From IMG/VR virus record IMGVR_UViG_3300010885_011343, positions 29,879 through 93,878 of that record: 64,000 nt of DNA; one strand, 5' to 3'. The stretch is from a virus. This document shows, one piece after another, positions 18,701 through 34,204 of this stretch (position 1 is the stretch's first letter; every line of letters begins with the position of its first letter). The notes beneath the pieces are model-generated. The model saw nothing but the letters and a program-made list of their open reading frames with translations, made no database searches and was not told the origin of the DNA. Both the position numbers and the translations under genes were made by a program.

Positions 18701-21700
18701 GCAGCCTGGGACTCCGCTAGCAGAAGACAATTCTTCTTATACAATGACTACCTACGTTGATGTAGACACAGGTATTATCAAAACTCGCTACTATTACTGG
18801 GTCCGCGGAATCAGCACAGTACCAGTAAATTCTAGTAGAAAATTAAGTGCATTGGCCTTAGAGAATGTGCTGTTGAACCCACTGGCACAAAACTTGCCAT
18901 ATGCCGCTATCTTAGATGATCATAGTATTGGTATTTTTAATTGCGTTGGTTACTTAAACAGCAACGACACTATTTTGAGAATTGATTACGATAAAGAATT
19001 AAACAATAATTTAATTCATAGCGAATACGAATTAATTCAAGAGAACAACCCGGATAGTGATCTGCCAGACCGTATATACAACAAACTAGTAGACAGTATC
19101 AGTGGCAGAGATAAAGAAAGACAGCGGGTACCAGACGTTAAACTACGCCCTAGTCAACAAGTTGGCTTAGAGTTGCGCCCCCGTCAAACCATTGTTTTAA
19201 ACAGATATGCCGCGCTAAAGAATCTAGTAGAATATTGCAATCGTGTTTTTGCAGAAAAGACTATCGCTTACAAATTACAAAACAGCAAACCTTTTGTAAA
19301 CAACTATTTCTTCCAAAAGGATCCGTTGCCCAGTAACGCTCATTATGATTACCTGGTAGAGAATCTGACAGAGCGTGATTATGTAAAAACAGATGAAGGT
19401 ATTCGGGTCTGTGTTAAGCACGACAGCAACTTCTTAGGTCTGTGGACAATATACGAATACACTGATGGCGCTTATAAAGTAATTAAAAACCAAACGTTTG
19501 ATACAACAATGGTTTGGGACTATGTAAATTGGTATGCCATTGACTTTGATTCTAATACAAAAATAACGTACACTGTTGATTATGCTAAAGATTTAGAAAA
19601 GTTATATTTAAAAGCAGGTGACATTGTTAAAATAACCAATGGTAGCAATGGTTACGAAATCTATCGCTATACCAGCAGTGATACCAGCGACTTGGTAGCA
19701 GTGGAAAACGGTACCGTTGCGCTAAGTTCTAAGCTATGGGACATTGAAGCCAATGATGTTGGATTTGACAGTAACGGTTTAGACAGCGTCGAGTTTGACC
19801 TGGACTACAGCACAGAAATTAGAAACGTCATCAACGGATTGCGAGAAACAATTTTTGTTGACGATCTAATAGACCATAGAAATAAAGTACTATTCTCTTT
19901 AATTAATTATATCTATAGCGAACAGAAACAGGTTGATTGGATTTTTAAAACTAGTTTTGTTAGTGTTACGCACCAAATTAAACAATTAGATCAGTATCCA
20001 AACTTTAGTAAAGACAATCAAACCTATTACGAAGATTATATCAAAGAAGTTAAGCCTTACAGAACTAAGTTACGTGATTACAGATTGAAATATACTGGCA
20101 CCGATACTGCCACCCTGAACGTTACAGACTTTGACATACCAGGACACTGGGATTCTGAACTTGGCCGCTTCCGTAGTCCCAGTGGAGAGATACCTGAAAA
20201 GGACTCAAAACTTTGGTTGAAGCCTGAATATCAGGATTGGGCCAACAACTTTACATATGGCATTGAAACAATCACAATGTCCAGCACCGGTATAGGATAC
20301 AATCAGCCTCCGGTGATTACCATTGTTTCCAATGGTGACAAAGGAGCGGGCGCAGTAGCAGAAGCAGTATTAGATTCAACCACCGGTGCAATAATTAAAA
20401 TTAACGTTGTTAAGTCGGGTCAGGGATATAAAAATACCCCGTTGATAGTTATCAGTGGTGATGGCGCCGGGGCAGTGGCAGTGGCAACATTGGCCAATAA
20501 CAAAATTCGTAGTATTAAAACTACATTGAAATTTGATAGAACGTCTTACACTACATCTGTTCGCGAGTGGGTACCTTTTGCTATGTTTGGCATTGGTGAC
20601 TTGGTTGCATACAAGGGTGTTGGATACAAAGCTATATCCAATGTACCATCATTGGATAAATTTGATCCTAAGTATTTTGTTACAGTCAAGGACACAGAGC
20701 TGGTTAATGCCAATGATAGAATTGCTGTAAAATACCAACCTACTTCTTATCAGATTCAACGAGATGTAAAAATTGACGGATCAATTGACTTAACTAGACT
20801 TATCCCCGGCACAGTATACGATGCACACAAAATTGACAGTACCATAGCTGTTAAGTCAGACACTGACTTTGACGTAATATTAGCTGAAAATAGTAATGAA
20901 ATTCAACTTGGATTTGATACAAACATATCCGGTGGTGCTTTTTACGATGAAGAAAAATCATATGCTCCTGAAGAATTAGTGCCAGGGGTAATGTACGATC
21001 ATTTGGCTATGACGGTGATTACTGATATCACAGTTGATTCTCAAACATCTCAGGTTGCCTATAGAATTAGCAAAGATATAAACAACAATGTTGATTACGA
21101 AGCTGTTGCCGGAATAGCAAGCACAACACTGGCACAAGATCTAGCCTGGGACGATACAAAAATATATGTAACAAGTTTAGATGGGTTAAGTGTTCCTAAT
21201 CCAAGTAAAGGCAAGCCTTGTTATGTTTATGTCAATGGCGAAAAAATTAGTTATTACCAAATTGATCAGCAAGAGAACTATTTGCACCAAATTCGGCGCG
21301 GCATAGGCGGCACAGGAACACCACTGGTACACCAAGCGGATTCTAAGTTGTACAATGCCAGCTCGGATTTACGAATCCCAAATGTCATTGAAGATAAAAA
21401 AGACAACTACAAGTTTAATTCTAGCGACGCTAGATACACACCGTCTTTTACAGTCTTGAACAATCAAGATTTTGTAACCCGTGCGCTAACATTGTTTATC
21501 TCAGAAAACCAGCTGACTTACGGCAAAGACTACATTATTACATTAACTCCTAAGCCAAATACAACACAAGCTACCGCAAATGTTGTTTTTACAGACTCTG
21601 CTAAACAGCGATATGTTGAGGGACTGATCATTCGTGCTGTGTACACAGAGCACACAATATGGTTGAATCCGGGCATAAATTCGGTTACTGACGGCACAGG

Positions 21701-21758
21701 ACTAGACGGTAGTACCACCGATACAGCTGAGTTTATTAAGGGATTTTCCTACTTTTAA
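9783..21758 (+). CDS. Giant baseplate wedge/tail structural protein (gp7 position), 3991 aa
   Basis: A single uninterrupted 12-kb gene between gp6 and the gp8-position gene, where T4 has gp7 (about 1030 residues). The N-terminus (DFLPTVFQTDTNKKFLQATL, then QFAPTYK and FVNFSQYYWLPNGP) matches a large structural protein of marine T4-like phages as I remember it. Visible segments: aromatic-rich beta repeats to about residue 1800; a PEWRPGKDYLKGDIVTY module near 1807-1845 like a chitin-binding CBM5/12 fold; seven FG-GAP-like repeats at about 2224-2835; a flagellin/hook IN-like insert near 2620-2685; and two GxGYxxxP repeats near 3500-3545. It probably forms the outer baseplate and may bind host glycans. 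Exact homology to gp7 is inferred from gene order. Confidence 0.7.
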   Translation: MATRRTLDFLPTVFQTDTNKKFLQATLDQLVSEPNFDRIDGYVGRQFAPTYKANDSYISEANKDRQNYQLEPSVLIKGSSGEATFYSNYSDLANKISYYGGVTNDHRRLFSNEYYTYTGLFDLDKFVNFSQYYWLPNGPSPIAISSKPVSSQATFTFTRDEANNSYTVAGQSSGNPELVVARGGFYKFVLNQPNSRFYIQTEPGVSGVKRLALNTSTRDIYGITANGVETGTIEFTVPLNNVQDRWLKIPLVENVDYATDALYQDLVGTPVDEFKIDGSNIGLNGKNVIFLNPADTHKGVYRIRFVNNTITFDKIRDIDPDSRVYVRSGLTYSNNEYYKTENNQWEAIPSLTAQLDVLYYQDATNPNMFGKIKILETPAEPLNIDELVIGKTQYTTQDGIQFTNGLVVKFDDSVLPAKYQNKTYIVEGVGSSITLVDFSLLVFPEPNAQVNTVPWDAVPYSSGTLDEPFRGPAIPDYFTSNRASIDLNAWARHNRWFHSDVIELSAKANGSTPLFDQAVRAQRPIIEAEPNVQLFQFGRVGKRPVNHIDVTTTDAFNQVQHSKSLLVNGVRLKEFDRILFANDKDPLVRSQIYTVRYQLQNEPSYRSVYDGTGRGSITRRIDGRNDYVEVIGSGTDFTSELDAGSTLYDAEGNYLGTVTQVMSSTSLGLIDTPNTFTGVSVFQYRNPKIQLTLGEADDAVDKFDCVVAIDGESKGKTYWYNGDTWQLAQQKSETNQILKFDAFDNTDTSFGSYNGTNFTGTNIFSYKTGSGKIDAVLGQALAYENTTNNTADLVFDNNFDNDTFTYVDGTQLLTKSINSGYIRQNVNGTEFVKRNVWAKVVEDTKQYQIFSKTYTGKTNHIEIDVLPESELEVPTTKVFVNNKLLESSQYSFQKVGKRNTVKVVASKLAVDDKIDVLIYSKSASKLGYYQVPANLEYNSQNKSFSKLTLGQIRNHLTATGQNTDKVSGLVPGPSNLRDLNIARQGGNILQHSAPTIYASLFLIDKQANYVNGIEYARREYTKFKNKFIELASTLPGLDLDNAGASVDIILSNINAIKNPSFSWHYSDMVPYGDCRILTYKIKDTNSYQFKIDSIFNDKQIQNRAVLVYLNNQQLIKDIDYTFDQTRPAVILNERFYLTNEDVIEIRDYKNTDGCYIPETPTKLGLHPKFKPTVYLDDTYREAVEVIQGHDGSLTPVFGDYRDSFLLELELRIYNNIKIDCKVHPTRYSPGQFRTIDYTPLEWNKVLNSNFLKWVGQNKLDFIANDWFDPNDPFTYNYRYSKDSLSNQNLNGYWRGIYRYFYDTDRPHIAPWEMLGFSEQPTWWENIYGPAPYTKYNTQLWSDLENGVVASGTLAGIDSAYIRPGLSKIIPVDENGGLLHPLAIGISTEFNSVQASSGYQIGDGAPIEAAWQRTSEYPYALQRSLALTRPAWYFGTLFDVNGYAKDAALDQYTVANTSRRVAPKDIVINGETVNNQITRASGYINWITDYMTSLGLDARSKLRNNLDNLTVELSYRVGGFTDKNYITVLAEQYSPTSTNASVVVPNESYSLILNKNVPKERVAYSAVIIEKTSTGFAVSGYNLNYPYFTVVPSDTAGESYAITQDGQAAMIYKEYRKQKLVIPYGHEFTTKQQVVDFLVSHQRYLLSQGFIFDEFDDTLAKTKDWVLSAYEFLGWTIQGWKPGSILILSPVSTKIKLITADGVVDEITNESNGTKILDPNFSVIRPVNFTSVREPDLFTLDTISGQTIAFLELDIVQYEHVLRFDNSTVFNDIIYQPESGSRQFRLKIVGSKTANWTGALNPPGFIYNNPTVPEWRPGKDYLKGDIVTYKSQYYTAAQKISAQTTFVQSYWKQIEKTQIKTGLLSNFANNAGKFVDVYDPDSSLLDHQMARMSAGLIGFRQRAYLDDFYLDTTTQSKFYQGFIKQKGTKQAIDAMLGAQFGDLQNNIQLHEEWGVRVGEYGALSSNQTVEIVLKESEIKNNPTGITIEETPVEALINVTDKQLWSRPLDTKPIRFLNRVSNDRQENDLQTAGYVNINDVDATLFSSGNYQLLTPTTKNVGSGYIVWVAKDHNKEWNVYRATETDASVLSIEYSLDQAGKVTTKNPHKLEANQTVVIRNLNNDYDGFYIIKSVLDRRSFTIGLTEEKSKALKQNPVTGAGILFVLDSVRFTYPGLVNDYTPPHGWKDGDMVWVDNADGMNRWAVYEKDSRWHYIEPEAITLGSYKPGGNYGTNVRIDDNNRFVIVSSPGAAQAAGRLHVFDYYYGQKERAVLSGGIEDTETLGTSLDIAQNIIVAGAPDSRVQTGLVMIYAFSEDLYFEPVQVLTSPGTGENPVATEQNLLGTQVGARYGFSLAQSRDSNILYVGSPGTNEVFIYAYHSEIETRFDRFSLAQAATGCTLPYELNDERSIAVYLHGIKPTAGQSNIGHKLLILGEDYSVVDNTVVFMSPLVTEDYDSFVLEDNEEIYFGSEDSTGSRGYIVIRRRGYYEYAGKIAGNTNSKFGYSVATGNTGAYVVIGAPDQTIDNIPYAGQASIYATRIKWIESNGVMRPDAEYALVEKLTAETPTYKANFGYSVEMGVTDSVVFVGAPGFATAAYDGGTVYRYINYGKEFGTIVGSVIDPVVAAGDLMVINEIDVLFTGGDLTKIIKDINNKKIIGVQASATADRRLVISSILQASNNKLNIIPTGNIVVKLGIKIFETTQKIKRPSTTEGDNFGSLVRVDNSGKTLTISSRTGTIYDYATYDNEQTTYDGNITRFVEIVKGSGAVYMYNLFDNPNDAPDPYGNYVFGEEFNAPGVALGDRFGIGVDFNNSQLWIGAAFNDTKGQNAGQVYKYTNESGNPSWYKKRAKSKNVDVSGINGISLYKKTTGEFITSLDYIDPVKGKNLGIAEQDISYKTSRDPAVYNNGSKDIDFYWSTQQVGETWWNLDRLRYIDYEQEELSYRLNNWGRLFTGSKVEVYQWIESGYLPSEYVANGQPGTPLAEDNSSYTMTTYVDVDTGIIKTRYYYWVRGISTVPVNSSRKLSALALENVLLNPLAQNLPYAAILDDHSIGIFNCVGYLNSNDTILRIDYDKELNNNLIHSEYELIQENNPDSDLPDRIYNKLVDSISGRDKERQRVPDVKLRPSQQVGLELRPRQTIVLNRYAALKNLVEYCNRVFAEKTIAYKLQNSKPFVNNYFFQKDPLPSNAHYDYLVENLTERDYVKTDEGIRVCVKHDSNFLGLWTIYEYTDGAYKVIKNQTFDTTMVWDYVNWYAIDFDSNTKITYTVDYAKDLEKLYLKAGDIVKITNGSNGYEIYRYTSSDTSDLVAVENGTVALSSKLWDIEANDVGFDSNGLDSVEFDLDYSTEIRNVINGLRETIFVDDLIDHRNKVLFSLINYIYSEQKQVDWIFKTSFVSVTHQIKQLDQYPNFSKDNQTYYEDYIKEVKPYRTKLRDYRLKYTGTDTATLNVTDFDIPGHWDSELGRFRSPSGEIPEKDSKLWLKPEYQDWANNFTYGIETITMSSTGIGYNQPPVITIVSNGDKGAGAVAEAVLDSTTGAIIKINVVKSGQGYKNTPLIVISGDGAGAVAVATLANNKIRSIKTTLKFDRTSYTTSVREWVPFAMFGIGDLVAYKGVGYKAISNVPSLDKFDPKYFVTVKDTELVNANDRIAVKYQPTSYQIQRDVKIDGSIDLTRLIPGTVYDAHKIDSTIAVKSDTDFDVILAENSNEIQLGFDTNISGGAFYDEEKSYAPEELVPGVMYDHLAMTVITDITVDSQTSQVAYRISKDINNNVDYEAVAGIASTTLAQDLAWDDTKIYVTSLDGLSVPNPSKGKPCYVYVNGEKISYYQIDQQENYLHQIRRGIGGTGTPLVHQADSKLYNASSDLRIPNVIEDKKDNYKFNSSDARYTPSFTVLNNQDFVTRALTLFISENQLTYGKDYIITLTPKPNTTQATANVVFTDSAKQRYVEGLIIRAVYTEHTIWLNPGINSVTDGTGLDGSTTDTAEFIKGFSYF
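16450..18290 (+). other. Seven FG-GAP-like repeats (propeller-like segment) inside the giant protein
   Basis: Seven copies of a repeat beginning YGTNV, LGTSL, YGFSL, FGYSV, FGYSV, FGSLV and FGIGV. Each is followed 8-15 residues later by a strand ending in a small-residue turn (VIVSSPG, IVAGAPD, LYVGSPG, VVIGAPD, VFVGAPG, TISSRTG, LWIGAAF) and then by a G-x-x-x-x-Y/F strand. That is the spacing of integrin-alpha-type FG-GAP blades, and seven copies would close one propeller. Two insertions, after repeats 3 and 5, interrupt it; the second resembles a flagellin IN motif. Confidence 0.7.
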
Positions 21759-24779: not shown

Positions 24780-25844
24780 ATGGCACAACTAGCACCAAAT
24801 TACGTTTCGGGCAATGTTATACAGCACGAGGACTATGATCTTTTAGTCTCTGGCAGTACTACAGGCGCAGTAAACATTCAGAACCCTAGCATTGGGACAG
24901 TCTGGGGAACTGGATATGGCCGTTATGGATTTGGGCAAGATGATTTATATCTCGAACCTGTGCAAAAGGGCGACCTAGTCAGAGCACAGCATTGGGACAA
25001 CATAGATGCCGCATTGAGCGCAGTAATCAAACACCAAGGCAATAACTACAACGGGCTACCTGGCGAGACGATCCAAGCCGGTAGAAGAATTTCACCTATC
25101 CCGGCGTTTGATGCTTTAATCAAACAAGCATTTGGTGATGCCGGCAAGATTTATGCTACCAGCGACACACCACCTTATAATACATCTTATACAGGGCTAT
25201 GGGGTGACACTGGCCGCCGTGATTTAAAGTTTATTCAAACATTATCGTTTGCCAATGCAGACAAGGCACGTTACTTTTTTAATGCTGGCGGAAAAATTAA
25301 ATTAAGTTTTTCTCGCACAGGCGGCGCCAACAAAGCACGTAACAGCGATTGGTCAGGGCTGTGTGCGGCAGCAGGAACTGTTGAAATTGGATATCGCAAT
25401 ACCAGAAAAGTTCCTGGATCAGACGGCGGATATGGCGGCTACAGCTATGGCGGCTACGATAACAATAATTACACTGCACTAGATCAAAACAACGGCGGAT
25501 TCTGGGCCAATAGCCCAAACCTAATCAAGACGCATTTTAGACAAAATAGCAGTGGTTATGGACAATATTCCAACGCTGGCAATAATGGCTATACCGGAGA
25601 CACCGCAGATTTTATCAAGGTTGAGCTTCGTGTTTACGGTAATACCGGAAACAATGGCGGTCTGGGTCTTGTAGTAGAAGTAACAACCACATTCGAAAAT
25701 GGTGCAACAGCAACACCAAATAGCCAGGACACTATATCCGGAACGGCCAACACAGGCCTAGTACTGTCGTACCCAGGCGAAGACTATCTGGAATCCAATA
25801 CCTGGGGAACCCCATCTTTTAATGGAGTGGTGTCCGCAGTCTGA
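24780..25844 (+). CDS. Virion structural protein, Gly/Tyr-rich middle
   Basis: A 354-residue protein that starts two bases after the fibre stop. It has a conserved-looking N-terminal half (ALIKQAFGDAGKIYATSD and FANADKARYFFNAGGKI), a Gly/Tyr-rich stretch near residues 220-235 (GYGGYSYGGYDNNNY), and a beta-rich end with VELRVYGNTG. Position and composition suggest a tail or fibre tip part. The family is not securely recognised. Confidence 0.5.
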   Translation: MAQLAPNYVSGNVIQHEDYDLLVSGSTTGAVNIQNPSIGTVWGTGYGRYGFGQDDLYLEPVQKGDLVRAQHWDNIDAALSAVIKHQGNNYNGLPGETIQAGRRISPIPAFDALIKQAFGDAGKIYATSDTPPYNTSYTGLWGDTGRRDLKFIQTLSFANADKARYFFNAGGKIKLSFSRTGGANKARNSDWSGLCAAAGTVEIGYRNTRKVPGSDGGYGGYSYGGYDNNNYTALDQNNGGFWANSPNLIKTHFRQNSSGYGQYSNAGNNGYTGDTADFIKVELRVYGNTGNNGGLGLVVEVTTTFENGATATPNSQDTISGTANTGLVLSYPGEDYLESNTWGTPSFNGVVSAV

Positions 25845-25876: not shown

Positions 25877-26200
25877 ATGACCCCAGATGATCTCAAATCC
25901 CTTGCGGACTTTAATTTTGAACGCTCAATACATTTAAAAAATATACGCGAGTCTGCACACGCTAAATTAAATGTAACTTACAACGGTGGAACGTTTACAG
26001 CCACTGTTGACCTAATAGGATTTTTAAATGTATGGCCCGATGAAACTGTAATCATCAAAGACATTTACCTCAATCCTATAGAAGTAAAACGCACAGAACT
26101 TTTATCGCTGATTATCCCTGCCTACAAAAATAGTATGCAATGGTGGCTTGGCGAGTTTGACTCTGGCAATCGTACTAGCTGGCTTGGTCCCGATGTCTAA
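25877..26200 (+). CDS. Small hypothetical protein, first gene of the glycosyltransferase/radical-SAM operon
   Basis: 107 residues with no recognised family. It begins with a helical, charged N-terminus (DDLKSLADFNFERS), followed by beta strands and a Trp-rich end (NSMQWWLGEFDSGN). No signal peptide or membrane segment is visible. It overlaps the following gene by 8 bases (ATGTCTAA). Position suggests it belongs either to the virion set or to the operon that follows. Confidence 0.6.
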   Translation: MTPDDLKSLADFNFERSIHLKNIRESAHAKLNVTYNGGTFTATVDLIGFLNVWPDETVIIKDIYLNPIEVKRTELLSLIIPAYKNSMQWWLGEFDSGNRTSWLGPDV

Positions 26201-27026
26201 GGGTGTATTAATATTTGCCTATAATTCTAATTTAGACTATGTTGCTCTTGCCACAGTAGCCGCTAAGTTAGTTAAAAAGCATTTGGGCCTGCCGGTGACA
26301 TTGGTCACTGATACAGACAATGTTGACTATTCTGTATTTGATCAAGTTATACGCAAAGACCTTGATGGCAAAATTTTTGAACGTGTTTTTAATTTTGGCG
26401 GCCCCGGAAAAAAGATGCCCTGGCACAATCAAAATAGAAGCAGCGCATATGATCTAAGTCCGTATGATCAGACATTGTTGATTGATGCAGACTACTTAAT
26501 TTTTTCCAACGACCTGAAAAAACTATTTGACACAAAATTAGAATTTGCCTGTTATAATAGTGTACAAGAAATATCCGGATGGGACGGATTGCAAAACGGT
26601 GCCCGAGTGGGCGTTCCTGGCATATCTATGCAATGGGCCACAGTGGTATATTTTACTAAGGGTCATTTGGCACAAGGCGTGTTTAGTTATATGTCGATGA
26701 TCAAAGAAAATTACAAATACTATGCTGCCGCGTTTAATTTTAAAACAGAATTGTTTCGTAATGACTACACTATTAGCATAGCATTACAGACATTAACAGG
26801 CTATAGCGACAGTAACTTTACTGCTATACCTGGGCAATTAATTTCTGCAAATACCACTGTTCAATTAGCCGAAGCTAACCCCAATGGACAGTTAGTGTTC
26901 ACCTGGAGTAGTTCAGACGGGTCAAAGAACGTCACTGGTATTAAAAACACCAGCGTTCATATTATGAATAAAGAGATATTAACAAATCCAGAAATATTAG
27001 ATCAACTTACGGAGCTGTCTAAATGA
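26193..27026 (+). CDS. Glycosyltransferase-like protein (GT-A type), paralogue 1
   Basis: 277 residues. An N-terminal strand-helix (GVLIFAYNSNLDYVALA) and LLIDADYLIF, with Asp98-Ala-Asp100 as a DxD-type metal/nucleotide-sugar motif, suggest a GT-A fold like GT8-family enzymes. The next gene has the same layout, so the two are paralogues. The ATG at 26193 overlaps the previous stop; the longer open frame back to 26148 would overlap more and is not used. Acceptor and sugar are unknown. Confidence 0.55.
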   Translation: MSKGVLIFAYNSNLDYVALATVAAKLVKKHLGLPVTLVTDTDNVDYSVFDQVIRKDLDGKIFERVFNFGGPGKKMPWHNQNRSSAYDLSPYDQTLLIDADYLIFSNDLKKLFDTKLEFACYNSVQEISGWDGLQNGARVGVPGISMQWATVVYFTKGHLAQGVFSYMSMIKENYKYYAAAFNFKTELFRNDYTISIALQTLTGYSDSNFTAIPGQLISANTTVQLAEANPNGQLVFTWSSSDGSKNVTGIKNTSVHIMNKEILTNPEILDQLTELSK

Positions 27027-27859
27027 GCCGCGGCTATCTAACGTTTGCACAAAATAATAGTCAAACAGATTATTTAAATCTAGCCTATGTGCAAGCACTG
27101 AGTATCAAGGCTACTCAAACTATAAATTCTTGTGCAGTGGTAGTGGATAAACACACAATGGAATTAGTCACTGACAAACACCGAGATGTGTTTGATTACA
27201 TTATCCTTTTGCCAGGAATAGACAACTCATCTGATGATTTTTGGAAATTAAAAAACGAGTGGAAAGCCTATGTCGCTAGCCCTTATCTTGAAACAGTAAA
27301 AATTGAAGCTGATATGCTGTTCACTGCCAATATAGATCATTGGTGGGATATAATGAGTCAGAAAGATATTTGCTTTACCACCGATGTTGTAAACTTCCGT
27401 GGAGAAGTTTCAAATAGTAGATTGTACAGAAAATTATTTGATTTAAATAACTTGCTTAACGTGTATAATGGATTTTTTTACTTTAAAAAAAGTTTGCTGG
27501 CAGAACAGTTTTTTAATTACGCAAAAGATATCTATGAGAATTGGGACTCTGTCAGGAAAGAAATATTAGTAGAAGCAGACACTGAGCAAGTGACAACAGA
27601 TGTAGTTTTTGCTATAGCTTGTAAATTAATTGGCGAAGAAAAATGCTATTTGCCAAATTGGAACGTTCCTAGATTTGCACATATGAAAGGCGCAATTAAT
27701 GGATTCCACTCCACTGAGGATTGGAGAACAAAATTAATTTACCAATTTGATCAAAGTACGCTGACTGTTGGGTTTACTAGACAGGCTGTGCCGTTCCACT
27801 ATCACTACAAAGATTTCATAACAAAAGAATTAGTAAGTCATTATGAGACCCTCGCTTAA
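27023..27859 (+). CDS. Glycosyltransferase-like protein, paralogue 2
   Basis: 278 residues, overlapping the previous gene by ATGA. N-terminal YLTFAQNNSQTDYLNLAYVQ and VKIEADMLF (Glu95-Ala-Asp97) line up with the NSNLDYVALA and IDADYLIF parts of paralogue 1, so the DxD is E-x-D here. The C-terminal FHYHYKD may supply further metal ligands. Probably the same enzyme class with a different substrate, or a partner subunit. Confidence 0.5.
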   Translation: MSRGYLTFAQNNSQTDYLNLAYVQALSIKATQTINSCAVVVDKHTMELVTDKHRDVFDYIILLPGIDNSSDDFWKLKNEWKAYVASPYLETVKIEADMLFTANIDHWWDIMSQKDICFTTDVVNFRGEVSNSRLYRKLFDLNNLLNVYNGFFYFKKSLLAEQFFNYAKDIYENWDSVRKEILVEADTEQVTTDVVFAIACKLIGEEKCYLPNWNVPRFAHMKGAINGFHSTEDWRTKLIYQFDQSTLTVGFTRQAVPFHYHYKDFITKELVSHYETLA

Positions 27860-28169
27860 AAGAAAACCTCTTGCTGAGATAATTTATAGAGTATACTATA
27901 ATACAGATACCGGCGACTGTACGGAAAAGTCAATTAACCTGCTGTTGGGCAAAGACTTTATTTGTGTAGAAAAAGAAATATACGAATCAATTGAGTTTTG
28001 TAGTTATTTTAAAGTTGTTGATGGCAAGTTACGTAGGAAATCTAAGGAAAGTGCCAAACTCAATTTGAAATTAACAGACAGCGGGCAGTTTACTACAATA
28101 AAAAACAATATGCTATTTGTCGTAAATAATGACTATAAAGGATTAGTGGAGAATTGGGAGTATCAATGA
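27843..28169 (+). CDS. Small hypothetical protein in the radical-SAM operon
   Basis: 108 residues, basic N-terminus (MRPSLKRKPLAEIIYRVYYN), a mixed alpha/beta pattern and no recognised motif. It overlaps the previous gene by 17 bases and the next by 4 (ATGA), so it is translated as part of the operon. Its small size and place between modifying enzymes leave open a carrier or adaptor role, which the sequence does not show. Confidence 0.6.
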   Translation: MRPSLKRKPLAEIIYRVYYNTDTGDCTEKSINLLLGKDFICVEKEIYESIEFCSYFKVVDGKLRRKSKESAKLNLKLTDSGQFTTIKNNMLFVVNNDYKGLVENWEYQ

Positions 28170-29059
28170 ACATTGCAGATTTAGATTGCATATACTTAAC
28201 CTACGACGAACCTCAAAAAGAAGAATTCTGGGTTAAAATTAAAGATATAGCGCCTTGGGCAAAACGTGTAGACGGAGTCAAGGGCAGTGACGCCGCACAC
28301 AAAGCGGCCGCCGCAGCCAGTAGTACAGACCGTTTTATCTTAATTGACGGAGATAACATACCTAACGGCGAGTTCTTCGGTGAACAGTTAAATCTTAACG
28401 ATGGTAATAAAGATTGCGTGTTCCGATGGAGAGCACGTAACGAAATAAATGGGTTAGTATATGGTAACGGTGGTATCAGTTGTTGGACTCGCGACTATAT
28501 AAACAATATGCGTACTCACGAAAACACCGACGGAAGAAACGAAACTGTAGTAGAATTTTGTTTTGACCCTAAGTACCTGCCAATGCATAACTGTTATTCA
28601 ACTACATATCCTAACGGAACACCATTCCAGGCCTGGCGAGCAGGATTTAGAGAAGGTGTTAAAATGGCACTGGACAGAGGCCGTCGAACCTCTATGACAG
28701 AATTTTTAAATATGCGAAGATATCAAAATATTGAATATCTATCAATTTGGCACAATGTTGGCGCAGACGTTGAAAACGGATGGTGGGCTATGTACGGCGC
28801 CAGGCTAGGAACATACTTGACACTGCTCGACGAAAATTGGAATTACACAGAAGTACAAGATTTCAATGCATTGAGATACATTTTTAAAAAAGTAGATTCA
28901 ATTCCAGACACAACAAGGCAAAAGCATTATGCCAGGATATCCAATGATCTTAGAGAAAAACTTCAATTGCCAATTATGGAAATGGATGCAGAACAAAGTG
29001 CATTTTTTAAAAAGTTTTACACAAGGCTTCACCAAAATAAAGGTATAATGGACAGATGA
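28166..29059 (+). CDS. GT2-like glycosyltransferase-family protein, DxD-containing copy
   Basis: 297 residues. The order RVDGVKGSDAAHKAAAAASS followed by FILIDGDN (Asp61-Gly-Asp63) is the layout of GT2 enzymes: a loop, an Ala-rich helix, then a DxD strand. FQAWRAGFREGVKMAL is shared with the paralogue at 31061, and the two flank the two radical-SAM genes. ATG 28166 has a GGGAG site 5 nt upstream; an in-frame TTG at 28154 is rejected. Confidence 0.55.
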   Translation: MNIADLDCIYLTYDEPQKEEFWVKIKDIAPWAKRVDGVKGSDAAHKAAAAASSTDRFILIDGDNIPNGEFFGEQLNLNDGNKDCVFRWRARNEINGLVYGNGGISCWTRDYINNMRTHENTDGRNETVVEFCFDPKYLPMHNCYSTTYPNGTPFQAWRAGFREGVKMALDRGRRTSMTEFLNMRRYQNIEYLSIWHNVGADVENGWWAMYGARLGTYLTLLDENWNYTEVQDFNALRYIFKKVDSIPDTTRQKHYARISNDLREKLQLPIMEMDAEQSAFFKKFYTRLHQNKGIMDR

Positions 29060-30012
29060 AAAAAATAGAATATATGAAATTAGTACACAACGAACAGTCT
29101 TACAATGACTGGTTTGTGGTCAATTGGTGTTTAGGTAATACCTGCAATTTTAGTTGCTCTTACTGCCCCGACAACTTACACGACGGTAGTAAAAAATGGC
29201 CAGAGTTGGAAACCATTAAACAGTTTATACTTAAAGTAAAAAATCAACACTCCGGTAAAAAGTTATATTTTGATTTCACTGGTGGAGAAGTTACTTTATA
29301 CAAACACTTCATTGAGCTTTGTGAGTTTTGCAAAGAACAAGACGTACGAGTTGGTATGATTAGTAATGGTAGTCGTACACTACGTTGGTGGGAAGAAAAT
29401 GCACACCTATTTGATCACGTGTGTTTGAGTTTCCACCCCGAGGAAGCTAAGCCGGATCATTATTTGGCAGTGGCTAAAATATTAGAAAATAAGTTTAGGT
29501 TACACCTGAACATTATGATGAGCCCGGACAAGTTTGACGAATGCTATCAGGTTGCTCTTAAAGCAACAGAGTTGCAAAATACTAGCATTGCATTACAACC
29601 GTTAATACACGACTTTGGTGATACACTGTATGACTACACAGACGAGCAAAAGAAGGTCTTTGAAGATCAGTGGAAACTCATTGGCAGCAAAACTGTTTGG
29701 ACTAAGTCATTGGAAAACTATCGTGGCGCAATGACAATGGTCACCGAAACAGGATCTAAAACTAGTTTGCCTCCGCACGAATTTATTTCTAAAGGGATTA
29801 ACAATTGGTTTGGTTGGAAATGCTATTCTGGTGTAGAACAACTTATTGTAGATATGGATGGTAGTATACATCGTGGCTGGTGTAAAGTAGGACGCCCAAT
29901 TGGCAACATATGGGATGAAAAAATTCATTTCCCAAAAGATCCTATTACCTGCAATAAAGTAATGTGTCATTGTAACTTTGACATTATGTCTACTAAGGAA
30001 AAAGTTCAATGA
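29056..30012 (+). CDS. Radical SAM protein with C-terminal SPASM-like domain
   Basis: 318 residues. The radical-SAM cluster motif is Cys30-xxx-Cys34-xx-Cys37 (CNFSCSYC), followed by FDFTGGEVTLY (the GGE motif) and VGMISNGSR. A C-terminal five-Cys module is at Cys256, 276, 299, 304 and 306, spaced X19, X22, X4, X1, a SPASM-like auxiliary iron-sulphur site. Such enzymes often modify peptides, but some act on sugars. Genes overlap by ATGA on both sides. The substrate is unknown; neighbours suggest a glycan or a virion protein. Confidence 0.85.
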   Translation: MKKIEYMKLVHNEQSYNDWFVVNWCLGNTCNFSCSYCPDNLHDGSKKWPELETIKQFILKVKNQHSGKKLYFDFTGGEVTLYKHFIELCEFCKEQDVRVGMISNGSRTLRWWEENAHLFDHVCLSFHPEEAKPDHYLAVAKILENKFRLHLNIMMSPDKFDECYQVALKATELQNTSIALQPLIHDFGDTLYDYTDEQKKVFEDQWKLIGSKTVWTKSLENYRGAMTMVTETGSKTSLPPHEFISKGINNWFGWKCYSGVEQLIVDMDGSIHRGWCKVGRPIGNIWDEKIHFPKDPITCNKVMCHCNFDIMSTKEKVQ

Positions 30013-31055
30013 AGCAATTGGCTGTTGGGACTGACAACGGATACGTTAATGCCAGCATAGAGGATTTAATTAGTTCCAAGTTAAATCAATTTCAAGGATG
30101 GCACTGTCAAGCTGGCGTACAAAATTTGTATATAGACTTTGATGGCAAAGTTTGGATATCTAATTGTGCCAGTACGCCCGGGACAAATCGTGTACACTTC
30201 CAAGGAACAAGACGTTGGGGAAATCTTGGCACTATAGAAGAAAAGTACACATTCCCTACCAATGGGGTGATCTGTCCAATGGCCAGCTGTGGTTGCGGTT
30301 CAGACATTGTAATCACAAAATGGTCCTCGGGCACAGAACCTGCGCACTCCAATGTTCGATTTGTGCCCTTTAAAGATGTCACAGAGATAACATCAGTCAG
30401 AACCAATTATCATATGCCCAAACAAGTATTGTGGGATATAAGTCGCCGGTGTAATTATGATTGTAGTTATTGCTGGCCTGAGGTACATAATACCACAGAT
30501 GAACATAAATCTTTGGCAGTACTAAGATCGGCGGCAGATCACATCATTGACAATTGGGCCGGCGGTGAGGAAGTTCGTTGGTACTTTGGTGGCGGCGAAC
30601 CTACTTTAAATCCAGACTTTGAACCATTTGTTGAGCATCTAGCTAACAGGAATCAATGGATTATGCTAGTATCCAATGCAAGCCAAGGACCTAGCTACTG
30701 GGCAAAAAATGCTAACCACTACAACACATTAATTTTTAGTGCTCATTTTGAATTTATGAAACCTGCGCTGTTTGCTAAAAATTATAAACAAGTTGGCGAA
30801 GTAATACTCAATGGCGCAACTAGATTAAACGATTTTATAGTAAAGCTAATGACCAAACCTGGAGAAATTAAACAGAGCATAGACTTTGTGAATGAACTAA
30901 AAGAGTCAGTTGGATACGACTTGTTAACAACGGGCAATAAAAATAAATTTGGATTTGATATGGTCCCACTGCGATCAATCAATGACGGCAGTAAGTTACA
31001 TCCAGACTACACTGACAGCGAGTTGCAGGAAATTCTTGAGTTTAATAAGCAGTAA
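30009..31055 (+). CDS. Radical SAM protein with N-terminal SPASM-like module (reversed domain order)
   Basis: 348 residues. The canonical cluster motif is Cys148-xxx-Cys152-xx-Cys155 (CNYDCSYC), followed by WYFGGGEPTL and WIMLVSNAS. The five-Cys module lies before it: Cys33, 53, 89, 94, 96, spaced X19, X35, X4, X1. Its surrounding sequence (VQNLYIDFDGKVW) matches the C-terminal module of the previous protein (VEQLIVDMDGSIH). No such module follows the radical-SAM domain. The domain order is therefore swapped relative to its neighbour. Confidence 0.85.
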   Translation: MKQLAVGTDNGYVNASIEDLISSKLNQFQGWHCQAGVQNLYIDFDGKVWISNCASTPGTNRVHFQGTRRWGNLGTIEEKYTFPTNGVICPMASCGCGSDIVITKWSSGTEPAHSNVRFVPFKDVTEITSVRTNYHMPKQVLWDISRRCNYDCSYCWPEVHNTTDEHKSLAVLRSAADHIIDNWAGGEEVRWYFGGGEPTLNPDFEPFVEHLANRNQWIMLVSNASQGPSYWAKNANHYNTLIFSAHFEFMKPALFAKNYKQVGEVILNGATRLNDFIVKLMTKPGEIKQSIDFVNELKESVGYDLLTTGNKNKFGFDMVPLRSINDGSKLHPDYTDSELQEILEFNKQ

Positions 31056-31060
31056 TTAAA

Positions 31061-32110
31061 ATGAGATATAGGATTTTTTATATTGATTGGTTAAACAATT
31101 CTGGTACTAAATCTTGGATAGACTTAACTCGTAGGTTTCCTAGTGTAACCCGTATAAGTCCCAAAGACACAATAGCAGAGACCTTAAGGTATTGTGCCGA
31201 GAATTCAGACACTGCTTATTTTTGGGTTGCTTCCAGTCTAGTAGACTACAAAAACTTTCATTTCAAGGATTACGGAGAATATGGCTTTGAACCGTATTTG
31301 CAAGTATTCAATTCTAGCACGTGGTTTGGTAGTAAAGAATACTTTAGACATTTGGACGGAGATTTAAAGTATGTTGAAGCATTTCCAAATTTACACTTTG
31401 TTAAAGACTCTACTTTAAAAGCCTCTGATGGATTGCTGGACATTGTCTACATAAGCAATGGCGAGCCGCTGGCAGAAAACCACTACCAGCACTTGCAAGA
31501 AACAGTAAAAACAGGCAATATGATACGTAGAATTGACGGAATCAATGGCCGCACGGCAGCATATCAAGCAGCCGCTCGTGCTAGTACTACCGCCTGGTTT
31601 TTTGCGGTATTTGCAAAAATAGAAGTAGATCCGAACTTTGATTGGACCTGGCAACCAAAACAGGAACCTTGGCACACTATTTTTTATGCTAAGAACCCAG
31701 TCAATGGATTGACCTATGGGCATATGGCTGTGGTGGCCTATAACAAATATCAAACTTTGGTCACAGACAAAACTGGATTAGATTTTGTAATGACTAAACC
31801 ACACGAAATAGTTCCAACAATCAGCGGCACTGCACACTACAATCAGGACCCGTGGACCACGTGGCGTACAGCATTTAGAGAAGCAATTAAACTGAAACAA
31901 AGCAATAGCGACGAGTCTCGCACTAGATTAAAGGCGTGGACTGATAAAGGAACGGGTAAATTTGCTACCTGGAGTAACAGGGGTGCTCGTGATGGTGCAA
32001 AGTACTACGACGAAGTCAACGGGGAACAAAGCCAACTGCTTCTTAGCTATGACTGGGCGTGGTTGAACGATCGGTACCAGTCTTTATACAGTCAATTACC
32101 GCCTCAGTGA
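31061..32110 (+). CDS. GT2-like paralogue without the DxD motif
   Basis: 349 residues. The region from about residue 155 (RIDGINGRTAAYQAAARAST, then NPVNGLTYGH and TWRTAFREAIKL) aligns with the 28166 gene product. The DGD of that copy is replaced by a FAVFAKIEV stretch, so it is probably not an active metal-dependent transferase of the same kind. The N-terminal 130 residues (DTAYFWVASSLVDY) are an additional domain. The last 68 bases overlap the convergent DegT-type gene. Confidence 0.5.
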   Translation: MRYRIFYIDWLNNSGTKSWIDLTRRFPSVTRISPKDTIAETLRYCAENSDTAYFWVASSLVDYKNFHFKDYGEYGFEPYLQVFNSSTWFGSKEYFRHLDGDLKYVEAFPNLHFVKDSTLKASDGLLDIVYISNGEPLAENHYQHLQETVKTGNMIRRIDGINGRTAAYQAAARASTTAWFFAVFAKIEVDPNFDWTWQPKQEPWHTIFYAKNPVNGLTYGHMAVVAYNKYQTLVTDKTGLDFVMTKPHEIVPTISGTAHYNQDPWTTWRTAFREAIKLKQSNSDESRTRLKAWTDKGTGKFATWSNRGARDGAKYYDEVNGEQSQLLLSYDWAWLNDRYQSLYSQLPPQ

Positions 32111-33251
32111 TATATTCAACTTCGTTGTCGGTTAATTCTGGATATATCGGTAAACTTAATTCTGTTCTACAAAAAGATTCCCCATATGGGTATGCGCCCA
32201 ATTGGCTTAAGAATTGTGTGTGCGGGTTGCAGGGCAGTTCGTTGAGCGGTGTTGAATAATGTATTTTGGTATCAATGCCGCGGTGTTCTAAGTTGCTTTT
32301 AACTTGGTTTCTAACTGGCAAAAATACTTGGTCACGGTGGGTTCTATTAAAAGCAAAAGAATCATCGATCCAAATTGGAAATTTATGCCAGGCGTGTTCT
32401 ATATCATTGCTGGTCTCCGTCACTCGTACGTGGGGCCGTAGGCGTTCACAGTAATATTCGGCAATTTGTTGTCGACGTTGTTGCCAAGTGTCAAAGTACT
32501 TTAATTTAACAAGCATCTGAGCGCAGTCTGACTCACTCATTTTACTATTAGTTCCGGTACTGATATGACCGTCGTCTTTACCATTGTCTCTTAAGTTGCG
32601 TACAGATTCTGCAATTTTCCAGTCGTCTGTAAGCAACATACCACCAGATCCATAGTTGGGTAAATTTTTAGTAGGATCAAAACTAAGAACACTAACATCG
32701 CCTAGCTTACCAGATGGGGTATCTTTGTAATAAGCGCCAAAACTTTGTGCGGCATCTTCGATGACAAATAGTTCATCATTGTTAAAGAACTCGTTGATAA
32801 GGCGCATACGATCAAAGTCAACTATGTTACCAAATAAGTTAACATACATCAACCCGCCAATTTTGTGTGTCCTAGGATGAAACGTTAATGTTTCTAAATC
32901 TATTAGACCGTGTTTGTCAACGTCACAGTAAACAGGATCATTGTTGGCCATAAGCACACTATTAGTAGTGGCAGCAAAACTAACAGTAGGAATAATAATC
33001 CTATCCTCTTTTAAGTCTGCGGCTATCTGTGCAAAGATTAATGCTTGGGTGCAACTATTAACAGCAAATGCATAGTCCCTGTGGCACCTTGCGGCCATTA
33101 GTGTTTCAAATAGTTTAGTCTTTTCGCCATCGAGTACTTGGCCGCTGGCGTAAACCTCATCGGCAGAATTGAGAAGTTCTTCTCGTAAATTTTCGTACTG
33201 TCTTTTCAGACCAAAGAACGGAACTTTCACTTTGCAATTTTTTGTTGCCAA
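32043..33251 (-). CDS. DegT/DnrJ/EryC1/StrS-type sugar aminotransferase
   Basis: 402 residues, PLP-dependent fold type I. Asp166 in VIEDAAQSFGA would bind the pyridine nitrogen and Lys195 in SFDPTKNLPNYGSGG would form the Schiff base. The C-terminal YPYGESFCRTELSLPIYPEL is typical of the family, which transaminates keto-sugars on nucleotides to make amino-sugars. It overlaps the upstream SDR gene by 25 bases, so the two are coupled. The C-terminal 15-20 residues overlap antiparallel with the + strand gene. Confidence 0.9.
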   Translation of the reverse strand: MATKNCKVKVPFFGLKRQYENLREELLNSADEVYASGQVLDGEKTKLFETLMAARCHRDYAFAVNSCTQALIFAQIAADLKEDRIIIPTVSFAATTNSVLMANNDPVYCDVDKHGLIDLETLTFHPRTHKIGGLMYVNLFGNIVDFDRMRLINEFFNNDELFVIEDAAQSFGAYYKDTPSGKLGDVSVLSFDPTKNLPNYGSGGMLLTDDWKIAESVRNLRDNGKDDGHISTGTNSKMSESDCAQMLVKLKYFDTWQQRRQQIAEYYCERLRPHVRVTETSNDIEHAWHKFPIWIDDSFAFNRTHRDQVFLPVRNQVKSNLEHRGIDTKIHYSTPLNELPCNPHTQFLSQLGAYPYGESFCRTELSLPIYPELTDNEVEYITEAVIDCIKTGTDRSTTPSHS

Positions 33252-34204
33252 TACGGGCTAGTGCTCAGCCAATCGTAGTAGTGTTGAAACCCTTCTTCTA
33301 CATCTACTTTGGGTGAGAATCCAAAGTCATTGCGAGCGGCATCGATGTTTAAAGCGCCACGGCTAGGAAAGTCTGCATCTTTATCTCGCACATTGATATT
33401 GCCCTGGCCTACAACTTTAACAGCAAGCTCGGCAGCTTCAAGTAGTGTTCTGCTATGCGACTTGGTGATGTTATAAGTCTTATTTTCTGTGTTATCACTG
33501 AGTGCGGCTGCTACAATACCATCGGCAGCATCATCAACATAGGTAAAGTCCAGTGTTTCATTGGCACCATTTACGTTTAACGTGCCGCCTCGCATTGCGG
33601 TAAGCATAAACTTAGCAATAACTCTATCCTCTACATCCAACGGTCCATACACAGCACTGGGACGAATAATAGTGTAAGCAAGATTATCTCGGCGTGCATA
33701 GTCTTTAACCAGCCATTCACCAGCTAGCTTCATAATGCCATATTGACCTTGTGGGTTGCACACTGCATCTTCTGTAACATCGTCAGTGAAGTCTCCGTAG
33801 ACCATTGAGCTACTGATGTAGATAAACTTTCTTGTTTCGTATTTCTTTGACGATTCTAACAGGTTAATCAACCCTTCGCTCATAACACGACTACCCCAGG
33901 CTGGATTAGCATTGACAACTTTTTGTCTAGGGAAGCTGGCCATATGAATAACAATTTCAGGCTCGTGCAGTGCAAACGCCCAGTCTACGTTAGCAGCCAG
34001 TGATATATCAATAGGATATACCCACGGGTTGGACATATCAATTTTCTTTGTACGCTCTACCATAAGGTAGTTGAGTTCTTCCTGATCAACAATACCATAG
34101 TTAGTGCGTATATCTAGGATAGATACTTCGTGTCCTAGTTGTTGTAGGCGTGATACAACATTATGCCCTATTAGGCCCATTCCGCCAGTTACTAAAATTT
34201 TCAT
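33227..34204 (-). CDS. NAD-dependent sugar epimerase/dehydratase (extended SDR)
   Basis: 325 residues. The Rossmann motif GGMGLIG is at residues 7-13. FIYISSSMVYGD and QYGIMKLAGE supply the Ser/Tyr-x-x-x-Lys catalytic group, and IIRPSAVYGP is the usual sugar-binding strand. It acts on a nucleotide sugar, probably in the same pathway as the overlapping aminotransferase. The start overlaps the thyA stop by ATGA. Which sugar it handles cannot be told. Confidence 0.85.
   Translation of the reverse strand: MKILVTGGMGLIGHNVVSRLQQLGHEVSILDIRTNYGIVDQEELNYLMVERTKKIDMSNPWVYPIDISLAANVDWAFALHEPEIVIHMASFPRQKVVNANPAWGSRVMSEGLINLLESSKKYETRKFIYISSSMVYGDFTDDVTEDAVCNPQGQYGIMKLAGEWLVKDYARRDNLAYTIIRPSAVYGPLDVEDRVIAKFMLTAMRGGTLNVNGANETLDFTYVDDAADGIVAAALSDNTENKTYNITKSHSRTLLEAAELAVKVVGQGNINVRDKDADFPSRGALNIDAARNDFGFSPKVDVEEGFQHYYDWLSTSPYWQQKIAK

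What the first reader, a model, noticed from the sequence alone, without database searches (positions are those of the whole stretch)
29056..31055. Back-to-back radical-SAM pair with the same SPASM-like module at opposite ends
The first protein has its five-Cys module after the radical-SAM domain (Cys256, 276, 299, 304, 306; X19, X22, X4, X1). The second has it before (Cys33, 53, 89, 94, 96; X19, X35, X4, X1), with matching local sequence (VEQLIVDMDGS against VQNLYIDFDGK). The genes overlap by ATGA, so the two modules lie side by side across the gene boundary. This suggests a permuted duplication or a split of a rSAM-SPASM-SPASM-rSAM ancestor. I know of no described phage pair with this layout.
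Basis: partly seen in the sequence, partly recalled or inferred. Interest (0 to 1): 0.88.

Follow-up and report, generated by a model that had tools for sequence, protein, structure and literature searches.

The report
Paired phage radical-SAM enzymes, permuted domains
A T4-like aquatic phage carries two related radical enzymes in which the same probable iron-sulphur-binding module sits at opposite ends, and most related phages keep the two as a single-copy pair near glycosyltransferase-type genes, which suggests that they work together on a surface sugar, although nobody has tested this.

Summary
In detail: coordinates, Cys positions and ATGA overlap are exact. The two five-Cys modules are homologous (hhalign 109.7; at most 16.2 in 30 column-shuffled controls) and their Cys nearly invariant. 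Protein A is rSAM then module; B is module then rSAM. A's model matches SPASM/twitch enzymes over nearly its whole length (BlsE, Z 17.3), and B's module has the same predicted element spacing around its first Cys. So B is a permuted paralogue of A.

Not supported: a split rSAM-SPASM-SPASM-rSAM ancestor (0 of 363 ORFs), or N-terminal modules being undescribed (NCBIfam N_Twi_rSAM; B fails its cut-off).

New here: of 44 A-bearing viral records of at least 50 kb, 37 hold B, once each, even where the genes lie kilobases apart; 27 of 33 B-bearing ones hold A. Bdellovibrionota MAGs carry homologues, and four encode rSAM and module as separate adjacent genes. A lies directly after, or is fused to, a glycosyltransferase-like protein in 34 of 61 cases.

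Best explanation: a two-enzyme rSAM-twitch unit modifying a glycan (inferred). A peptide or tail-protein substrate is the main rival. New variant of a known kind.

The parts
29056..30012 (+). Gene A, 318 aa: radical-SAM domain (CX3CX2C at Cys30/34/37) followed by a C-terminal five-Cys twitch-like module
29731..29997 (+). C-terminal module of A (about aa 226-314; Cys256, 276, 299, 304, 306)
30009..30012 (+). ATGA overlap of A stop and B start
30009..31055 (+). Gene B, 348 aa: N-terminal five-Cys module followed by the radical-SAM domain (Cys148/152/155)
30009..30320 (+). N-terminal module of B (aa 1-104; Cys33, 53, 89, 94, 96)
30393..31052 (+). Radical-SAM domain of B (about aa 129-348)
28166..29059 (+). 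'DGD' glycosyltransferase-like protein (297 aa from the ATG) overlapping A by ATGA; relatives are fused to A in some phages
   Evidence: glycosyltransferase nature not shown by a family hit
31061..32110 (+). Second, diverged copy of the DGD protein (349 aa); FAK replaces the DGD motif
26193..27026 (+). GT8/glycogenin-like protein (family c2)
   Evidence: (profile match over 107 of 279 positions)
27023..27859 (+). Second GT8/glycogenin-like protein (family c2)
27843..28169 (+). Conserved small protein (c42/c7) between the GT8-like genes and the DGD gene
25877..26200 (+). Conserved small protein (c3) at the head of the island
24780..25844 (+). Conserved upstream gene (c5) of no known family, following tail-fibre/virion-type genes
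32043..33251 (-). DegT/DnrJ/EryC1-type sugar aminotransferase
33227..34204 (-). NAD-dependent nucleotide-sugar epimerase/dehydratase

Best explanation
A and B are permuted paralogues: radical-SAM enzymes sharing one portable, twitch-like auxiliary module, placed C-terminally in A and N-terminally in B. [Supported: homology of both domains, nearly invariant Cys, matching predicted elements.] They form a conserved two-enzyme unit, usually one copy of each per phage, probably acting in one pathway and perhaps as a heterodimer. [Co-occurrence shown; joint action and contact inferred.] Each cleaves SAM at its CX3CX2C cluster, and an auxiliary iron-sulphur cluster in the module takes up or relays an electron or holds the substrate, as proposed for other twitch enzymes. 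[Inferred.] The substrate is most likely a sugar or glycan made by the neighbouring glycosyltransferase-type and sugar enzymes, used to decorate tail fibres or to change the host surface. [Inferred from gene context and fusions.]
For: Module homology. Cys conservation. A's model (pLDDT 93.5) aligns with BlsE between model residues 17 and 316 (Z 17.3, 268 residues, 4.0 A rmsd); SkfB, SuiB, EpeE and anSME are at Z 15.0-16.8. In B (pLDDT 88.4) the elements E4-7, E12-15, H17-22, C33, E39-42, E47-49 mirror E226-229, E235-238, H240-245, C256, E262-265, E270-272 in A. B occurs in 37 of 44 A-bearing viral records of at least 50 kb, once each at E <= 1e-60 (36 full-length, one cut at a contig end). A occurs in 27 of 33 B-bearing records. 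At 85% identity 20 of 24 A clusters hold B in at least one member. N_Twi matches vary from 0 to 7 per record, and all 6 records without any still have B. Sugar context: DGD protein directly upstream of A (30) or fused to it (4) in 34 of the 61 distinct A genes of loci L081-L160, 5 more having no upstream gene in view; GT8/glycogenin-like neighbours (E 5e-6); DegT and epimerase genes in the window; in Bacteriovoracaceae a Pfam GT2 domain on a longer protein beside B, in L168 joined to a stretch that matches the A-type rSAM profile (40 bits) but has no CX3CX2C (sequence).
Against: No substrate, complex or cluster has been measured. Nearest folds include peptide-modifying enzymes (SkfB Z 16.8, within 1 of BlsE). 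The DGD protein has no family hit in the window and only a sub-threshold GT2 hit in one relative (17 bits against 23.3), so its glycosyltransferase nature is not shown. In 22 of the 61 A genes another gene lies directly upstream of A. The epimerase family (c22) was seen in only 8 of 160 loci, so those sugar genes are not a constant partner. Seven of 44 A-bearing records lack B and 6 of 33 B-bearing records lack A, so the pair is not strictly obligate, although all are possibly fragments. The compared records were all found through similarity to this window's two proteins.
Confidence: 0.46

Rival explanations
1. The pair modifies a peptide or a phage structural protein (tail fibre or one of the small conserved island proteins c3 or c7), like a RiPP maturase pair such as TrnC/TrnD of thuricin CD.
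For: Nearest solved folds include RiPP enzymes SkfB, SuiB and EpeE. Small conserved proteins and tail-fibre genes precede the pair. [quoted passage not shown] I ran no dedicated search for precursor peptides, so one may exist.
Against: The NCBIfam RiPP-maturase models among the 25 shown for each protein match only the rSAM core and lie far below their cut-offs. None of the nine window proteins scanned around and including the pair hit a peptidase or transporter family.
Confidence: 0.29
2. A and B are independent accessory enzymes that share an island; their adjacency and co-occurrence reflect common descent of the island only.
For: In a group of phages they are not adjacent and face opposite ways. 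Related records hold 2 to 15 rSAM matches (28 records). Records are related, some nearly identical (33 clusters at 95% among 44).
Against: B stays at one copy and is present when N_Twi paralogues are absent. Co-occurrence holds in 20 of 24 clusters at 85% identity. In 5 of the 9 bacterial genomes with a full-length B match, an A-like gene lies on the same contig.
Confidence: 0.13
3. A and B arose by splitting a single rSAM-SPASM-SPASM-rSAM gene.
For: The A-B tandem occurs in both large B subclades (window and long-insert types; L055, L165, L166).
Against: No ORF with that order among 363 hits in 160 viral loci. The one two-module protein seen, L176 (655 aa), has rSAM-module and then a second module with no further rSAM profile hit. 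Module and rSAM also occur as separate genes, so a fusion route needs no such ancestor.
Confidence: 0.06
4. The pair makes antiviral-type nucleotides, like viperin.
For: Best NCBIfam hit by score for both proteins is the viperin family (61.3 and 43.8 bits); viperins also rank high among PDB profile hits.
Against: Far below the cut-off of 180 and limited to the rSAM core; viperins lack this five-Cys module (recalled); gene context is sugar-type and tail genes.
Confidence: 0.03

Closest known systems
Twitch/SPASM radical-SAM enzymes (BtrN, MoaA, BlsE, SpeY, SkfB, SuiB)
   Same: rSAM core plus a Cys-bearing module; A aligns with BlsE across both domains (Z 17.3); number of Cys fits one auxiliary cluster
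   Different: Five conserved module Cys in the order CX19C...CX4CXC; in B the module precedes the rSAM domain; no Pfam SPASM (PF13186) hit in A or B at E <= 1
NCBIfam NF033640 N_Twi_rSAM (read here as N-terminal twitch)
   Same: Module before rSAM, as in B; found in the same phage islands; four of ten phage proteins scanned have a Pfam SPASM hit near the N-terminus
   Different: B scores 26.1 of 170 bits, over the rSAM part only; the modules do not align above control; separate branch in the rSAM tree, although AU does not reject grouping
TrnC/TrnD of thuricin CD (two rSAM enzymes in a tight complex)
   Same: Two rSAM enzymes that work together (abstract and outline seen)
   Different: Acts on peptides; family relation to A/B not tested
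Radical-SAM-rich T4-like marine phages (PMC5332604: 12 rSAM genes in one genome; PMC7029224: rSAM cassettes and many glycosyltransferases, GT8 most, in pelagimyophages)
   Same: Same kind of phage and, in PMC7029224, the same tail-fibre region (passages read)
   Different: The passages do not describe the A/B pair, the permutation or the DGD fusion; PMC7029224 reports no rSAM proteins in its freshwater genomes

Membership tests
Radical SAM superfamily (PF04055) | Pfam score above 29.5 bits and CX3CX2C | tested here: met
   47.7 and 42.2 bits; CX3CX2C Cys in 61 of 61 A and 48 of 48 B sequences
SPASM domain | About seven module Cys (recalled) for typically two auxiliary clusters (PMC9012708) | tested here: not met
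   Only five module Cys are conserved in A and B; A's Cys123 and Cys163 (60 of 61) lie in the rSAM part. No PF13186 hit in either
Twitch domain | Truncated SPASM module binding one auxiliary cluster, by four Cys in BtrN and three in MoaA (PMC9012708) | tested here: inconclusive
   Cys number fits; A's model aligns with BlsE through residue 316 and with BtrN (Z 12.5); B's module could not be superposed and cluster binding was not measured
Twitch domain | Module is a C-terminal extension of the rSAM domain (PMC9012708) | tested here: not met
   Met by A, not by B
N_Twi_rSAM (NF033640) | Score above the curated cut-off of 170 bits | tested here: not met
   B 26.1 bits, aligned at 126-231 only; not among the 25 best of 43 families shown for A
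N_Twi_rSAM (NF033640) | Common origin of the N-terminal module | tested here: inconclusive
   hhalign B against N_Twi module 1.6, below the shuffled control; AU p 0.425 for B plus N_Twi on one side of a branch
Viperin family (NF038283) | Score above 180 bits | tested here: not met
   61.3 and 43.8 bits
Two-rSAM complex of the TrnC/TrnD type | Stable heteromeric complex, neither enzyme effective alone | not testable with these tools
   No complex prediction or assay available; only co-occurrence known

The most novel reading that the evidence does not exclude
The five-Cys module is a portable auxiliary iron-sulphur subunit of one radical-SAM family that works in cis at either end or in trans as a separate protein (encoded so in four Bdellovibrionota MAGs), and phage A and B form a heterodimer whose two modules lie face to face, so that one enzyme's cluster can serve the other's radical, on a glycan carried by the neighbouring or fused glycosyltransferase-like protein.
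Probability: 0.2. Interest if true: 0.82.

Novelty: new variant of a known kind. Interest (0 to 1): 0.58.

Why it matters
Auxiliary clusters of SPASM/twitch enzymes are described as C-terminal extensions whose role has long been hard to prove (PMC9012708). A family in which the same module is found after the catalytic domain, before it, or as a separate overlapping gene offers a natural test of whether the cluster must be covalently attached and whether it can act in trans. The near-constant single-copy pairing in these aquatic phages also singles out two enzymes, among 2 to 15 rSAM matches per record, as the likely core of an uncharacterised phage pathway.

Tried and rejected
INPHARED phages: tblastn of B found no match. 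A found only Pelagibacter phage HTVC008M, 36% over 27% of the query (two records of one phage); one N_Twi relative found none. So no phage in that collection showed the pair at that sensitivity.

PDB profile search of the DGD family gave nothing credible (best E 0.15), and Pfam and PHROGs found nothing in the window copies, so 'glycosyltransferase-like' rests on motif, context and one sub-threshold GT2 hit.

Aligning the A/B modules with the N_Twi module by hhalign failed (scores 2.4 and 1.6; 60 of 177 N_Twi modules used). Rooting the permutation failed: AU does not reject B with L172 (p 0.418) or B with N_Twi (p 0.425). The rSAM tree (96 rows, quick search, SH-aLRT only, midpoint root) left 30 of 93 inner branches open and warned of long branches. 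The module tree (68 rows, 75 columns) is poorly resolved. Fourteen proteins whose module did not fit my motif were left out of it. Row choice for the trees was mine, with N_Twi rows drawn at random.

Superposing the two modules in 3D was not possible: model coordinates are not in the Python box. B's structural search aligns essentially the rSAM part, as expected for sequential aligners, so it neither proves nor disproves a shared fold of its N-terminal module.

The PHROG 262 DNA polymerase profile, used to ask whether the bacterial loci are prophages, hit 5 of 16 genomes, none on a contig with a listed A1-profile match; it also rings in 5 of 14 control genomes including E. coli, so it is a weak test. 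L175 carries the phage-type order c3, c2, c2, DGD, so that contig may be viral.

Literature: nine searches listed no title or abstract on this pair; I read passages of PMC7029224, PMC7678222, PMC7150976, PMC5332604 and PMC9012708 and the abstract of PMC12093266, not the other listed papers. Most subscription papers are not in the library. The Grell 2015 SPASM review was not held.

Full report
What was checked. The upstream gene also overlaps A by ATGA (29056-29059) and the next gene starts six bases after B ends, so four genes, DGD-A-B-DGD2, form one tight run. The window lies in a 93,878-base virus record. Among ten window proteins scanned, PHROGs names baseplate, tail-fibre, virion and DNA-polymerase proteins; 'T4-like' is my reading of these. 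The record holds two radical-SAM matches over the Pfam cut-off, A and B themselves, and one weak match below it.

Are the two modules the same thing? Yes. A and B match each other in both domains (rSAM E 5e-13, module E 1e-9). Profile comparison of the modules (12 A and 14 B rows) scores 109.7, while 30 column-shuffled versions reach at most 16.2. In A all five module Cys are kept in 61 of 61 sequences. In B four are kept in 48 of 48 and Cys33 in 47 of 48; in a larger set with long-insert forms, Cys33 is kept in 66 and Cys53 in 59 of 67. In five of the eleven long-insert modules listed that Cys lies two residues earlier. These counts leave out 22 distant and 4 fused A proteins.

Structure. AlphaFold2 models are confident (B pLDDT 88.4, pTM 0.88; A pLDDT 93.5, pTM 0.89). 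A matches twitch/SPASM enzymes over most of its length: BlsE Z 17.3 (268 residues aligned between model residues 17 and 316, 4.0 A), SkfB 16.8, SuiB 15.6, EpeE 15.1, anSME 15.0. Rows within one Z unit are tied, so sugar and peptide enzymes are not separated by this. B aligns mainly by its rSAM part (BlsE 12.0, model residues 135-348; best row Mmp10 13.0), as a sequential aligner would give for a permuted protein. Counted from the first module Cys, the predicted strands and helix before and after it fall at the same offsets, within one residue, in both proteins (A: 226-229, 235-238, 240-245, C256, 262-265, 270-272; B: 4-7, 12-15, 17-22, C33, 39-42, 47-49). B thus begins about at the module boundary. 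A direct superposition could not be made.

What kind of module. Five Cys are too few for a full SPASM domain and fit a twitch domain, which binds one cluster (PMC9012708, passages; the SPASM Cys number is recalled). Whether a cluster is bound is untested. N-terminal modules are not new as such: NCBIfam has N_Twi_rSAM. Of ten related proteins scanned, five score above its cut-off of 170 bits (238, 329, 315, 332, 317), one just below (154) and the others far below or not at all. Four of the ten have a Pfam SPASM hit before the rSAM domain, and one has it after. B is not a member (26.1 bits, rSAM part only), and its module does not align with the N_Twi module.

Distribution in phages. In the 160 loci (best 80 of each search kept), 363 ORFs hit the profiles: rSAM-module 139, module-rSAM 70, long-insert module-rSAM 33, and 121 others; overlapping loci count some genes twice. 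None has rSAM-module-module-rSAM order. A common gene order is c9 and c5, c3, two GT8-like genes, c7/c42, DGD, A, then B or other rSAM genes; family c4, whose scanned member has B12-binding and rSAM domains, is in 51 of 160 loci. In another group of phages B lies on the opposite strand from A, kilobases away.

Pairing. Of 44 A-bearing virus records of at least 50 kb, 37 hold B, once each at E <= 1e-60 (36 full-length, one cut at the contig end). Of 33 B-bearing records of that size, 27 hold A. Clustered at 85% identity of A, 20 of 24 clusters hold B in at least one member. The seven A records without B are those of L082, L107, L108, L111, L117, L118 and L136; the six B records without A are those of L020, L035, L036, L040, L058 and L059. 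All are possibly fragments. N_Twi matches (E <= 1e-20) number 0 to 7 in the same 44 records, with at least one over the cut-off in 38, and all six records without any still have B. So A and B look like the more constant core, and N_Twi genes like variable additions. The records are not independent and were found through this window's proteins.

Beyond phages. A genome scan with the B profile confirmed 87 relatives and kept 79 loci; those with near full-length matches are mostly Bdellovibrionota MAGs. Some lie among ordinary chromosomal genes, such as PheS and GidB in L171 and MeaB and biotin carboxylase in L170. Of 16 genomes searched whole, nine have a full-length B match, and in five of these (G061-G065) an A-like gene shares the contig. 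In four genomes (those of L173, L174, L175 and G069) the rSAM domain and the module are separate neighbouring genes, overlapping by four bases at the junction in the three sequences read (L173, L175, G069). L173 and L174 are nearly identical. An Oligoflexia protein (L176, 655 aa) has rSAM-module followed by some 260 residues without an rSAM profile hit and a second module.

Evolution. In the rSAM tree B proteins from phages and bacteria form one branch (SH-aLRT 98; 34 of 35 B rows, L172 outside) and N_Twi another (99). AU tests reject neither L172 joining B (p 0.418) nor B and N_Twi forming one side of a branch (p 0.425). The module has changed sides, but the ancestral order is not settled. 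Separate genes, and perhaps the two-module protein, suggest a permutation by fission and fusion or by duplication (inference).

Function. Clues to a sugar substrate: a DGD protein directly upstream of A (30) or fused to it (4) in 34 of 61 distinct A genes of loci L081-L160, 5 more having no upstream gene in view and 22 another neighbour; GT8/glycogenin-like proteins next door (profile match to glycogenin over 107 of 279 positions, E 5e-6); DegT aminotransferase and epimerase genes in the window, though the epimerase family was seen in only 8 of 160 loci; and, in Bacteriovoracaceae, Pfam GT2 domains (54.9 bits in L167, 36.2 in L168; cut-off 23.3) on longer proteins beside B. In L168 the rest matches the A-type rSAM profile (40 bits) without CX3CX2C; in L167 the likeness is only by eye. 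Against certainty: the DGD protein has no accepted family, and peptide-modifying enzymes are structurally as close. TrnC/TrnD show that two rSAM enzymes can work as one complex (PMC12093266, abstract). The favoured mechanism is therefore a two-enzyme rSAM-twitch unit acting on a glycan of tail fibres or host surface; chemistry and complex formation are inferred.

Known literature. Radical-SAM-rich T4-like marine phages are described (PMC5332604: 12 rSAM genes in one genome, passages), as are rSAM cassettes with glycosyltransferases in the pelagimyophage host recognition cluster (PMC7029224, passages; it reports none in its freshwater genomes) and rSAM and glycosyltransferase genes in Tasman Sea phages (PMC7150976, passages). 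No title or abstract on the pair, the permutation, the single-copy pairing or the separate modules was listed in searches.

Verdict. Real, conserved, and a new variant of a known enzyme kind; more interesting for its pairing and movable module than for the gene-boundary layout first noted.

Noticed in passing
window 31061-32110: The second DGD protein has FAK where most relatives have DGD (or DAD); the same change is in L002:6283-7359. It is probably a non-catalytic copy kept next to B.
   Followed up: partly
L167:3994-5871 (-) and L168:4239-5990 (-): Bacteriovoracaceae proteins with a GT2 domain and a long C-terminal part, in L168 rSAM-like by profile but without the CX3CX2C motif, placed head to head with a B gene.
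   Followed up: partly
L192:74-10998: Elusimicrobia contig with a tandem run of many radical-SAM genes, three with matches to the B12-rSAM family c4, unlike the phage order.
   Followed up: no
L017, L030, L031, L034 (family c30): Small proteins that by eye resemble A-type iron-sulphur carriers (CGCGESF ending in the printed member) lie in the same loci as B in several related phages; no family search was run on them.
   Followed up: no
L173:1-12959 and L174:1-12959: Bdellovibrionia loci with seven N_Twi-type genes each around the separate rSAM and module genes.
   Followed up: partly
L084, L097, L102, L111 (fused DGD+A, 754-941 aa) and L024:490-4827 (-) (DGD protein, 1446 aa): Large DGD proteins; the fused ones carry repeated tryptophan-rich segments (read by eye) before the DGD domain, and the 1446-aa one has no Pfam match.
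   Followed up: no
window 9783-21758: One ORF of 3991 aa shortly before the tail-fibre genes.
   Followed up: no
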